Source of the DNA: Trogon surrucura
Taxonomy: Eukaryota; Chordata; Aves; Trogoniformes; Trogonidae
DNA: 64,000 nt
Assembly: GCA_020746105.1 (NCBI GenBank)
Contig: CM036622.1
Span: 42,819,477-42,883,476, forward strand
Direction: 5' to 3'
In this document: piece by piece, positions 38,001 to 44,000 of the stretch
How positions within the stretch are numbered: position 1 is the stretch's first letter
Layout of the letters: each line of letters opens with the position of its first letter
Program-made: the position numbers and the translations under genes
Notes under the pieces: model-generated
The model's database searches: none
Told to the model about the DNA's origin: nothing
Seen by the model: only the letters and a program-made list of their open reading frames with translations

Positions 38001-41000
38001 CTTGTACATTCTTGTTCAACACAACCTGTTTCTTCTTGTACATGCATCATAAAATTACAGTTTATAAATACACAAATTGTAAAAGTCCAATTTCTTTTCC
38101 AACATATTAGGTTGTGTTACATTTTCTAACTTGATGCTAGTTTTTATTTTTAAGTGGCAATTCCAGCCTACGCCTTGTGCGCTAAGATGGTAAATTTTAT
38201 TCGAAGTCTGCCTTCTCTCTCAAAGACATCTCAAAACCAAAAAGCTATACAAATTTTTCAGAGGTGAAAATTTAACCTTAGATGCAATTTTTTGCTTGCT
38301 CAAGATAAGTAGGCTTATAGCTTGCATATCATGTTTAACTAGACACTTTAGAGCACCTTTCATACATCCTTGCCCTAAAGAACAAGTATTTTAGCTTCTG
38401 AAGTACAACACTTAGAGCAGACCCTTTACTAGCACACACTTTACTAGCACCTACCCACTAGAAATCAGATACTAGTGTCACATTTGGGCTTACTTAATTG
38501 AAAGCTGCCCTCTATGGAGATGAAAAGCATTCAAGAATAGAGGAATGTGACACAAAAATACATTCTAATACCACCAAAAGGATACAGACAACTCTTACCT
38601 CTGTTCAAAGTAACCCTGGAAAGCCCGAAGTCTGTCAACTTTATATGGCCCTGATTAGAAATGAGCATATTGTCTGGCTTCAGATCCCTGGAGACATGAA
38701 TATAGTTGAAGTCAGCAAACAGAAAACTGAGCAATATTAAGAAAGTTAACTGACCAGAAACACTCAATACAAAACATTGATTATAGCCATTTCTCAGTAA
38801 CTTCTTAGCCAGCAGATTCCAGCCGGAAGAGTACACCAAGACAGTTAAACTTATCTAGAACTAAATATTGTACAAACATCCCAGGTCTTGTAAAACCACC
38901 ATGCATGGCACAATTTCGTGTTTCAGCAGGTTTAACAGTGTTCCTAGTGAGTACTAGCATCACAATATTCACTAATGTGTAGCTCCTATAGATGACAAGC
39001 AAACATCTAGTAAAAGCCTTCATGCCTATTCTCTGTAGCTCCACTGAATGCAGCAAAAAACCTCTCACTACGGGGGGAGCACGAGAGCCGACAATGTCCC
39101 TTTGTCCTACAGTTACATGTTTGCAGTATCCAGAGGGTCCCTGAACTAATCCTTATCTAAAAGCCACAAAGAGAGAGAGAGAGGACTTGGCAGCACAGCT
39201 GCTAACACACCACTGCACTGTGGCAAGAGCACGCAGGCAGGGGAAAGCCATATGCATTTGTCTGCTTAACATATATGGCCAAATTTTACTTTAGGTGCTG
39301 TTTCCCAATATTGCTGCTGTATACACGTGTATACAGAAAGTCTAGCAAATGAGGTGGCCCTTACTATAACATGGTGATTGGTTATGTGTTTCAGTGAAAG
39401 ATTAAAACCCCAAACTACCACGCACTTATTTGTAACAGAAAAGAACTAGATTTTACCTGTGGATTATCCCATGCCTGTGAAGATAGTCAAGAGCCAACGC
39501 TGCTTCAGAAATATACTTAACAGCCATTTCTTCATCAAAATATCCATAAATATGAAGAAGAGATTTGACATCACCACCAATAAGGTACTCCATCACCTGC
39601 CAGTCAAGCATTTTAAATTTAAACACTTTAAAAACACACTTCAAATCTGCACGTAAAATATAAAATAGTTTTCACCTTTAGAAAAATATAATTTCAAAAG
39701 CTGATAGAAGCTTCCTTGTGTGAACTTCAATTCCCACAAAACACTTTTCACTTGGATAAAATAATTAAAGCTTCATATGAGAGAAGACATGAAACATTTT
39801 CTTTTAAAGGAATACCATTTACTTATTTTGTATTATTTGCTTATCCAACTTTCTGTAGTCAGTCAAATAACTACTGTAGACAGCTTTTCAATTATTTTCT
39901 GAAAGACTTTTATATTATGAAAAATAAATTGCAAAGCACTTCAGTGAAATGCAATGGCTGAAGCCAAAGCCCACTGATATTCTGATTTGCCTGGAACAGG
40001 TATCTCAATGATTTTATCTTGCAAATATTTATATACAATATTAAATTCAGATCTGAGCCTTGTGAAATAAATGCAAATTTCCAGAAATGTATACAGTGAG
40101 AGCTCCTGTGCACTTAGGACACAAAAAAGTGTGTTTTAAAAAAATTCTTCTCTGCTCCATGCAGCAGTTAACAGAGATTCCAGGAAAAGCCTTCATTTAT
40201 ACTCAAAACACATTGTAGGGGTGGAAAGCATCCTCATCTCAGAATTTAATCAAGCTCTTCACTCTGTGTGCTTACAGTAAAGCAGAGAAATTGTGCTAGA
40301 CACTTTATAGACCGTCTTAACCCATACTACCTTTATGTGGAGGCAGTACATAGAGTTGCAAGAGAAAGTATGTGAACCTTCTGGATTTCATGGTGTTCTG
40401 TATTAATTTGTCATAAAATGTGATCTAACTGTCCTCTAAGTTAAGAGTATTGACAAATATAATGTGTCTAAAATAATAACACAAAAACAATTCCGACCCT
40501 CCATGTCTTTATTGAACACACTCATCATTCAACATTCAAAATGCTCGTGGAAAAAGTGAATCCTTGAGCTGACCTCAGAAAAGCTAATCAGAGTCAGGTT
40601 AACCTGGAGTCTTGTTAAGAAAATTAGTTTGGAGGTTTGGACTAGAGCTATGCTGACTGACAAAAACCACTCAAACTCTTTGAGTTTGCTCTGCACAAGA
40701 TGTATGCTTATATGAGCCATCCCTTGCCAGAAAGAGCTTTCAGAGGATCTACAGATCAAGAACTGTTGATTTACATAAATCTGGAAAGGGTTACAAAGTG
40801 ATTTCACAGACCTTAGAAAATCACCGGTCTACAGTTAGGCAAACTATCTATAAATGGAGACACTTTGGGACTGTGGCTACTCTGCCAAGAAGTGGGCACC
40901 CAATCAAAATGACCCCAAGAGCACAACAAAGACTCATCAATGAGGTAAAGAAACAACCACAAGTGATAGCCAAAGAGTTGAAGGCATCACTGGAACTGGC

Positions 41001-44000
41001 TAACATCCATGTTAATGAGTCCACAGTACATAAAACTTTGAACAAGCAGGGTGTCTGTGGCAGGACACCACGAAGGAAGCCACTGCTCACTATAAAGAAC
41101 ATTGCTGCATGCCTGAAGTTTGCAAAAGAGCACATCAACACTCCACAATGGTATTGGCAAAATGTTTTGTGGACTGATGAGACAAAGATTGAACTATTTG
41201 GAAAGAACACACAGCACCACATCCGACATAAAAACGGCATTGCATGTCATCATGAAAACATCATCCCAACTGTAATGTGTGGTGGAGGAAACACCATGAT
41301 TTGGGCCTGCTTTGCTGCATCAGGGCCTGGCCAGCTTGCAGTCATTGAGGGGATAAGAAAGACCCAAGTGTATAAAAAAATTCTTCAGGATAATGTGAGA
41401 ACACCTGTATGTCAGCTGAAACTCTACAGACGTTGGGTGATGCAACACCGGGGCAAGTCTACAACAGAACGGCTTCAGAAAAACAAAATCCGCCTTTTGG
41501 AGTGGCCGAGTCAGAGCTCAGACCTCAACCTAACAGAGACACTATGGAATGAATTGAAGAGACCTGTACACATGAGATGGCCAAAGAATATGACAGAGCC
41601 AAAGCAGTTCTGCCAAGAAGAATGAGCTAAAATCCCTCCTGAATGATGTGCAGGTCTGATCCACGGCTACAGGAAGCACCTGGTTGAGGTTATTGCTGCC
41701 AATGGGGGGGGGGGGGGGGGTGTCAACCAATTATCGATTTCAAGGGTTCACTTACTTTTTCTAACGCTTTGCATCTTGAGTGAATGTGTTCAATAAAGAC
41801 ATGGAGGATCAGAACTGGTTTTGTGTTATTATTTTAGGCACATTATATTTGTCAATACTCTTGACTTCGCTGGCACTTATATCACATTTTATGACAAATT
41901 AGTGCAGAACACTATGAAATTCCAAGAAGTTCACATACTTTTTCTTGCAACTGTAAAATCATATTCACACTCTACCATACCCCACACTGGTCCATGTAGA
42001 CTAGCACTTTGTTTTGCAACTCAGTTATCCTCGTCATCTAAGCCAACTACCATAATGAATTTTGAGCACAGGCAACAAGTGAATCAGATTTCCTTTAAGT
42101 GAGCCTCAGGGTGTCTTTCAGTCACTTGGATTCTGCCTAAACAGAATGGTTTCTTGTTTTGTTTTCCCTATGATTCCTACATATTCCTAAAACAGATTAG
42201 CTATTAGAAAAGACTCTCCTAAAAAAGGGAACACAGGTAGAAGGATCTCATATGTACCAGGGGAAAAGGAATATTTCACTTATTCAATCATTTTGAGAAC
42301 GAAAGTAAAAGTGACTAATATCCATTCAGTACCGCAAAAATATTTTCAGGCATGAATATAGTTCCACACTCCATTTTCAACACTATCATAAAACACCACA
42401 GCCATTTATTTACTCACTAAATAGATGTTATTAGCTGACTGAAGTGAGTAGTATAAGTGCACAATGAAAGGACTTTTACTGAGAGCCAATGCATCCCTCT
42501 CTGCCTGGACCTGATGAACCATATTTTTGTTGATCATGTCTGCTTTTTTCATCACCTGAAAAACAAAACAAAAATCAAGTCAATACATATACTCTTCTTT
42601 AATCAACCCACAGTTCTTTAGTCAAATAATTTATCGCTATACTTCAAACTTGCATATATACATATATGTAAAACAGAGCTAAAGCTTCATATAGAGACAG
42701 AATTTTAAACCACAGGTTATTAGAGAACCTTTTTCATTGCTCCCCTACTTCAGTCCTGAATGGAAATCATGCTAACAACATTTACTGCAATCACACATGC
42801 TTGAAAGTGTTTAGGCTGCCTGTGAAATTAAGCTGCCCCACGTTAATCCTCTTATCCATAGTACCCAACTCAGAACCAGGAAAAAGTGCTCGACACTTAG
42901 ATATACACTTGCAGACCAAGACTTTCCATATCTTCCGAGACTGAGATATATTGCCTGAGGACTGAAAATAGAATGCAGTAGTAAACCATCCCATCTTGGT
43001 ATCCTGAAGTACAAGACTATTACTATTCCAGCCTCTAATTCATAGCTTTGCAGAGAAAGCAAATGAATTTTTGCTTAACTTAAAATTTACAACAAATCAT
43101 CCAAAACACAGTTGCTTCCTTGGGGAAAAAAAGCCTCAAAGGCATGCAACCCAAAATGAATAAATAAGAAGCTTAACCGTGAATTAGGCTCCATCCAGTT
43201 CCTGTATTGAATTACTTCACTCTATATTAATCTTTAACAGAAGATGCATAATAGCACAGCTGATAGGTATTCAGGCAAGCACTGCATTAGCTTTCACCTC
43301 AAAATGTTTATAATAAAATAAAGAGACGTACATAGCTTTGAAGGTCTATTTTGCATGAGTGTTCATATTTCCTTTTCTTTGTGTACTATGCGGCTGATTC
43401 TATCCCTTTTAATTGCAAAGTCAAGCTCACACAAACCATTGGTAAAGTTTTTACTGCTGACAAGCCTAAGGTTTTAGTCCTTTGTGTATCAACGTACAAA
43501 ATGCAAGTGTTTTTTTTTTCTTAAAAAAAGCGTATACTCAGCAAAAAAACTTTTTTATAATCTGCTGTCTTTATGCGTTTCGGAAGAGTTTTCATTCATG
43601 AGCAAACGTGAGAACGGCCGCCCGGCGGCACAACAGCAGAACGCATTCAATCACAAGTATTTACAAGCAAGAAGCAAACAGGACACTGAAGCTTCGGCGT
43701 AGTTTCCTCGACGTTTAAGGTACTTCTAAAAGCAGTTATCGTTATCAGATGCCTCCTAACCAAAGCCTCCAGGCGAACAAGAAAGCGAGAAGAAAGCTAA
43801 ACACAGCCAGGCTGTTCACACAGCGCCCCGGCACTGGGCTTCTGCCCGCGGGGCGGCAACTCCCCATGAGCCCAAGGGCCGGACGGAGGCAGCAGGGCTC
43901 ACATCGGGGCAACCCGGGGGCCTGCCGGGGCAGGCCTCCGTGGAGCACCTCCCTCTCCCCTCGGGATCTCCCTTTCCTAGGGAGGGTTAAAGGAAAGCGG

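What the first reader, a model, noticed from the sequence alone, without database searches (positions are those of the whole stretch)
40353..41953. Long-TIR Tc1 element inside bird MASTL intron 2
A near full-length Tc1/mariner element (1601 bases, TIRs of about 190 bases, flanking TA) sits in an otherwise typical avian locus. DNA transposons are scarce in birds, and this terminal sequence looks like Tc1 families of fish and amphibians. The readable transposase suggests a moderately recent arrival, so horizontal transfer into an avian ancestor is a reasonable hypothesis.
Basis: partly seen in the sequence, partly recalled or inferred. Interest (0 to 1): 0.75.

Follow-up and report, generated by a model that had tools for sequence, protein, structure and literature searches.

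The report
Decayed Tc1 transposon family in bird
A dead copy of a jumping gene of a kind mostly found in fish and frogs sits inside a cell-division gene of an unnamed bird, and it appears to be one of several hundred copies that spread through this bird's genome long ago, which is unusual for birds.

Summary
A 1601-bp Tc1-type element lies at exactly 40353-41953, between TA dinucleotides, with ~214-bp terminal inverted repeats (TIRs), antisense in intron 2 of MASTL. This copy is dead: lost start codon, 1-nt frameshift, 18-nt deletion removing the second catalytic Asp, two in-frame stops.

It is not a lone relic. The window's own unnamed 1.17-Gb genome (Spin exons on C67 and C60 suggest a Z/W pair) holds 689 TIR ends at <=3 mismatches, 0 in the reversed control. 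The majority of 25 fetched copies plus this one has 216-bp TIRs (214 identical) and one 340-aa DD34E frame related to Sleeping Beauty. Copies lie mostly 5-10% from the majority in a star-like tree: an old burst. No full-length frame without a stop appeared among 123 scored matches.

Recalled bird rates put the burst very roughly 20-65 million years ago. Horizontal arrival is likely but inferred: no other vertebrate genome could be searched. I saw no report of so large a DD34E family in a bird in seven paper searches.

The parts
40351..40352 (.). left TA (target-site duplication)
   Evidence: TA directly outside the left TIR; TA on both sides in 20 of 26 aligned copies
40353..40567 (+). left terminal inverted repeat
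   Evidence: blastn self-match 40354-40567 with 41740-41952, 82.9%; first base is G where the family majority has C
40719..40721 (+). remnant of the transposase start codon, reads ATC
   Evidence: aligned to majority positions 369-371; letters
40753..40753 (+). 1-nt insertion, frameshift near the N-terminus
   Evidence: alignment to family majority; KELSEDL is readable in the other frame upstream
40684..41625 (+). open stretch of the broken transposase (313 aa, ends at TGA 41623-41625)
   Evidence: Pfam HTH_Tnp_Tc3_2 and HTH_SB over cut-off; PDB SB100X 5cr4 E 2e-52
41176..41178 (+). codon of first catalytic Asp (LWTDETK), kept
   Evidence: alignment with SB100X
41443..41444 (+). site of 18-nt in-frame deletion that removes the second catalytic Asp
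41536..41538 (+). codon of catalytic Glu (NLTETLW), kept
   Evidence: alignment with SB100X
41644..41646 (+). second in-frame stop (TGA)
41704..41720 (+). run of 17 G; 13-nt insertion here relative to the family majority
41740..41953 (-). right terminal inverted repeat, with a 17-nt direct repeat near its inner and outer ends (41746-41762, 41929-41945)
41954..41955 (.). right TA (target-site duplication)
39457..39596 (-). MASTL exon 3 (host gene, bounds intron 2)
42418..42555 (-). MASTL exon 2 (host gene, bounds intron 2)
44072..44263 (-). MASTL exon 1, coding part

Best explanation
The element is an inactivated copy of a Tc1/mariner DD34E cut-and-paste DNA transposon of the Sleeping Beauty / ZB group. 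An active ancestor, whose 340-aa transposase bound the ~216-bp inverted repeats, cut the element out and pasted it at TA dinucleotides, entered this bird's ancestry (most likely by horizontal transfer, inferred), multiplied to several hundred copies mainly in one burst, and decayed. One copy landed antisense in MASTL intron 2, was tolerated because exons and splice signals were untouched, and has since decayed about neutrally. Shown: anatomy, TA sites, large family size, star-like divergence of the copies examined, inactivation of this copy, no full-length stop-free frame among the copies scored. Inferred: mechanism (from the known family), horizontal origin, absolute age, extinction, neutrality for MASTL.
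For: Ends and TA. On the majority protein Pfam HTH_SB, HTH_Tnp_Tc3_2 and DDE_3 are over cut-off and SB100X matches at E 6.8e-85; D153, D244, E279 with 34 residues between the last two. First-look candidates in the own genome: 661 (40 scored) for the DNA, 830 (119 scored, 123 matches) for the protein, 296 (150 scored, 150 matches, the rows listed all over cut-off) for PF01498; 689 TIR ends against 0 in the reversed control. 54 of 58 aligned rows lie at K2P 0.053-0.102 from the majority; mean tip branch 0.060, mean internal 0.011. Two premature stops in the window copy against about 3 expected from neutral decay. Of 123 protein matches the 3 without stops are partial.
Against: No other bird, reptile, fish or frog genome could be searched (no relatives held), so horizontal transfer has no phylogenetic support here. 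Only best-ranked candidates are scored or fetched, so an older layer of copies, or an intact low-ranked copy, is not excluded. The window copy is at the diverged end: second farthest from the majority of 26 (0.0865; 40th of 58) and the highest TIR-TIR distance of 26 (0.182). TIR-TIR distances (median 0.116) give a younger burst than distance to the majority, and some well-supported small clades exist, so it was not one instant. Near-identical pairs on C60/C61 hint at later movement or gene conversion.
Confidence: 0.85

Rival explanations
1. Old vertical inheritance: a Tc1 lineage has persisted in archosaurs or all birds, and these copies are its last burst.
For: One genome cannot exclude an older resident lineage; most candidates were not scored, and these could include older copies.
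Against: Of 58 aligned rows, 54 lie at 0.053-0.102 from the majority; the other four are a copy with a long insertion and three fragments cut with flank. A published survey lists ZB-like elements in 2 bird species and SB-like in 1, with no length or TIR entry for birds (PMC9777934); recent bird structural variation is called largely devoid of class II elements (PMC13320814).
Confidence: 0.12
2. The MASTL copy has been kept by selection as a coding or regulatory element (exaptation).
For: A 313-aa stop-free stretch survives.
Against: Second catalytic Asp deleted, start codon lost, frameshift before most of the reading frame; two stops match neutral expectation; the copy is more diverged than the autosomal median (0.086 against 0.079). 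Regulatory use was not tested.
Confidence: 0.03
3. Assembly artefact or contamination by fish or parasite DNA.
For: Related clades are mainly in ray-finned fish (PMC9777934).
Against: The copy lies within a MASTL intron on a 60.6-Mb contig; matches lie on C1, C2, C6-C12, C15, C60-C63 and C67; the 26 aligned copies have different adjoining bases except the pair L010/L011.
Confidence: 0.01

Closest known systems
ZB-like clade of DD34E/Tc1 (PMC9777934; ZB itself in PMC7913693)
   Same: About 1.6 kb, ~340-aa transposase, TIRs around 200 bp, TA target, DD34E; wide in fish, frogs, lampreys, squamates. Distance to SB similar: ZB-SB transposase identity 51.3% (PMC7913693); here 55.5% over 227 catalytic residues and 48.9% over 47 PAI residues.
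   Different: The 2 published bird records have no length or TIR entries; here hundreds of copies, many full-length. No ZB sequence was available to align, so placement rests on size and distance to SB only.
Sleeping Beauty (SB) and SB-like
   Same: Same domain order, catalytic D153/D244/E279 (SB numbering recalled), Pfam HTH_SB, ends beginning CAGTTG (SB end recalled).
   Different: 55.5% identity over the catalytic part, a little under the 58-61% reported between SB and ZB groups and well under the 68% between SB and SB-like (PMC9777934).
galluhop, the known bird mariner (PMC5556988)
   Same: Tc1/mariner superfamily in birds, mostly without coding copies, suspected horizontal transfer, TA target (passages).
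   Different: A mariner of about 1.3 kb (passages), not the DD34E/Tc1 type; not compared by sequence here.
AviRTE in birds and filarial nematodes (PMC4844689)
   Same: Cenozoic horizontal invasion of some bird lineages (listing abstract and passages).

Membership tests
Tc1/mariner superfamily | terminal inverted repeats bounded by a TA target-site duplication | tested here: met
   TA on both sides in 20 of 26 aligned copies, on one side in the other 6
DD34E/Tc1 | DDE triad with 34 residues between second D and E | tested here: met
   met by the family majority (D153, D244, E279); not by the window copy itself, whose second D is deleted
DD34E/Tc1 | HTH DNA-binding domains plus DDE_3 catalytic domain | tested here: met
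   PF25787, PF01498, PF13358 over cut-off on the majority protein; in the window copy PF01498 and PF25787 pass, PF13358 is under its cut-off (24.2 against 28.6 bits)
ZB-like clade | element of 1.5-2.2 kb, ~340-aa transposase, TIR up to ~214 bp in squamates and frogs | tested here: met
   1610 bp, 340 aa, TIR 216 bp against Table 1 of PMC9777934; TIR 2 bp above the listed squamate maximum, within the fish range; these ranges overlap other clades
ZB-like clade | groups with ZB-like sequences in a transposase tree | not testable with these tools
   no relative found in any held collection
Sleeping Beauty clade | CDS identity over 80% within the clade (PMC9777934) | tested here: not met
   55.5% amino-acid identity to SB100X over 227 residues; nucleotide identity was not measured
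Horizontally transferred transposon | patchy presence, and element distance below host-gene distance between species | not testable with these tools
   no other vertebrate genome held (no relatives here)

The most novel reading that the evidence does not exclude
A ZB-like/SB-group DD34E transposon jumped horizontally into a bird lineage in the earlier Cenozoic, expanded to several hundred copies including many full-length ones, is best preserved on the W chromosome, and dead copies there were still moved in trans after most of the family had decayed. It would be the first large DD34E invasion documented in a bird.
Probability: 0.3. Interest if true: 0.7.

Novelty: new member of a known kind. 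Interest (0 to 1): 0.55.

Why it matters
Birds are held to be nearly free of DNA transposons: in one survey less than 3% of horizontal transfers among 307 vertebrate genomes involved mammals and birds (PMC7070016, abstract in passages). Several hundred fish-type Tc1 copies in one bird give a set of datable markers: presence or absence at orthologous TA sites in related birds would date the arrival, help with bird relationships, and let the donor (fish, amphibian, squamate or parasite) be sought. Copies on the W could test whether that chromosome shelters, homogenises or remobilises old transposons.

Tried and rejected
Relatives in held collections: none found. Viral contigs by the broken protein, by an alignment with SB, by two motif patterns and by the majority protein (the one pattern hit, L001, showed no relative by tblastn, best E 0.052); genome contigs by alignment and by pattern; phages and plasmids by tblastn. 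Paper searches for TIR strings gave 10 papers, whose titles concern other subjects (listing only), and for protein strings none. tRNA and Rfam scans of the window were empty.

Rejected: lone relic (onward); a still intact element (every full-length frame scored has stops, best-ranked candidates only); protein kept by selection; other copies inside the window (only the element, its own TIRs and one 23-nt match at E 0.30).

Rows set aside: for the 0.053-0.102 range, L046-L048 (K 0.205-0.210; my extraction included about 300 bp of flank) and L088 (0.135, length 2003 with a long insertion). For the second majority and the class medians five near-duplicates (L011, L020, L035, L047, L048) were dropped, while L046 stayed in the W class and L088 in the autosomal class; pairwise median and tree used all 58 rows. 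Two of the 25 full copies (L010/L011) are one segmental duplication and both entered the first majority.

Not completed: a globin search to guess the bird order.
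Full report
Observation. The element lies at 40353-41953 (1601 bp) with TA directly outside both ends. Its ends match in inverted orientation over about 214 bp at 82.9%, far above chance (215 bits against a maximum of 41 bits in 100 dinucleotide shuffles). A stop-free stretch 40684-41622 matches Pfam HTH_Tnp_Tc3_2 and HTH_SB over cut-off and DDE_3 under its cut-off and, in the PDB, Sleeping Beauty SB100X (E 2e-52).

Place. MASTL runs on the minus strand. Exon 1 (coding part 44072-44263), exon 2 (42418-42555) and exon 3 (39457-39596) have GT/AG splice signals, and exons 2, 3 and part of the next match human Greatwall/MASTL 5LOH at 4.9e-74. The element takes 1.6 kb of the 2.8-kb intron 2, antisense to the gene. 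Spin-family exons occur three on C67 and three on C60, 6 matches among 19 candidates scored. I read this as a Z/W gene pair (its sex linkage in birds is recalled), so C67 is taken as Z and C60 as W. C61-C63 are treated as W pieces by their place in the numbering only.

State of this copy. Against the family majority it has a lost start codon (ATC at 40719-40721), a 1-nt insertion at 40753, an 18-nt deletion at 41443, a 13-nt insertion in the G run, and small TIR indels. The 18-nt deletion removes the segment that holds the second catalytic Asp; the first Asp and the Glu remain. TGA stops stand at 41623 and 41644; the first is where SB has Trp. About 3 stops are expected from neutral decay at 6.5-7% substitution, with 41-46% of simulations giving 2 or fewer.

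Family. In the own genome the element's DNA gave 661 first-look candidates, of which 40 were scored. The majority protein gave 830 candidates, 119 scored, 123 matches. PF01498 gave 296 candidates, 150 scored, 150 matches, with the listed rows over cut-off; the same search rang in 0 of 14 control genomes. A 28-base TIR end with up to 3 mismatches occurs 340 + 349 times and its reversed control 0 + 0 times. As a full copy has two ends, this suggests roughly 350-700 copies with a recognisable end. I fetched 39 places, then 18 more element places and two longer stretches of C60. The majority of 25 full copies and the window copy is 1610 bp with TIRs 214/216 identical, ends CAGTTGC...GCAACTG, and one 340-aa frame with D153, D244, E279 and 34 residues between the last two. 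TA stands on both sides in 20 of 26 and on one side in 6. Of 123 protein matches three show no stop, all partial (1-265, 109-339, 145-340): no intact full-length frame among those scored.

Origin. PMC9777934 (abstract, methods, results and start of discussion in parts 1-3 of 6, and passages) reports ZB-like elements in 271 ray-finned fish, 17 frogs, 19 squamates, 5 jawless fish and 2 birds, SB-like in 1 bird, with no length or TIR entry for birds, and infers horizontal transfer for most hosts of these clades. PMC7070016 (passages) finds under 3% of detected vertebrate transfers in mammals and birds. PMC13320814 (a preprint, passages) calls TE structural variants in birds largely devoid of class II elements. 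PMC5486457 (passages) finds low TE diversity in five bird genomes. The 1610-bp, 340-aa, 216-bp-TIR family fits the ZB-like ranges, and its distance to SB (55.5% over 227 catalytic residues, 48.9% over 47 PAI residues) is like that of ZB to SB (51.3% over the protein, PMC7913693 abstract and passages). I file it as DD34E/Tc1, probably ZB-like, and hold horizontal arrival likely but unproven. In the papers listed (one search listed none), mostly seen as titles and abstract starts, I saw no report of a DD34E family of hundreds of copies in a bird; literature outside the library could hold one.

Late events on C60/C61. The ten closest of all pairs, and the next (0.036), lie on C60/C61; the closest pair elsewhere is at 0.061. 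L010/L011 share flanks at 98-99% (segmental duplication). L016/L020 differ by 0.016 yet have unrelated 300-bp flanks, the 98.3% match stops at the element ends, each has its own TA, and both carry the same two premature stops. L034/L010 likewise share element sequence at 99.4% but not the adjoining flank, and L091/L096 at 95.0%. Either dead copies were moved in trans long after the burst, or copies on this chromosome are homogenised by gene conversion. Restriction to C60/C61 speaks for conversion. The match up to the ends speaks for movement, but the 20 changes found only in L016/L020 run from position 172 to 1599 of 1610, so the left end gives no private support. I leave it open.

Verdict. 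A real, well-formed but dead Tc1 element, a member of a large decayed family in a bird. New member of a known kind, with above-average interest because of the host.

Noticed in passing
G000 C60 (L016/L086, L020/L085, L034, L010) and C61 (L091, L096): Near-identical element pairs without shared flanks, the closest sharing two premature stops, were seen only on C60/C61 among 58 rows: late movement in trans or gene conversion.
   Followed up: partly
G000 C60-C63: 28 of the 150 PF01498 matches lie on C60-C63, about 1.6% of the genome. Ranking favours less decayed copies, duplications are counted, and only C60 is tied to a W by a gene.
   Followed up: partly
window 3922-4665 and 57873-58632: A different interspersed repeat in two direct copies, 75% identical over 781 columns; not identified.
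   Followed up: no
window 59676-60151: CR1-like 3' end: a 131-aa open frame followed by two ATTCTGTG octamers. The CR1 assignment is recalled; Pfam gave nothing for it.
   Followed up: no
window 41704-41720: Run of 17 G where the family majority is 13 nt shorter, perhaps slippage or a sequencing error.
   Followed up: no
G000 C1:184968198 and C1:183779615 (L012, L015): Two copies 1.2 Mb apart form the closest pair off C60/C61 (0.061), share two premature stops by position (609, 807) and have unrelated 300-bp flanks, as a local hop of a dead copy would give.
   Followed up: partly
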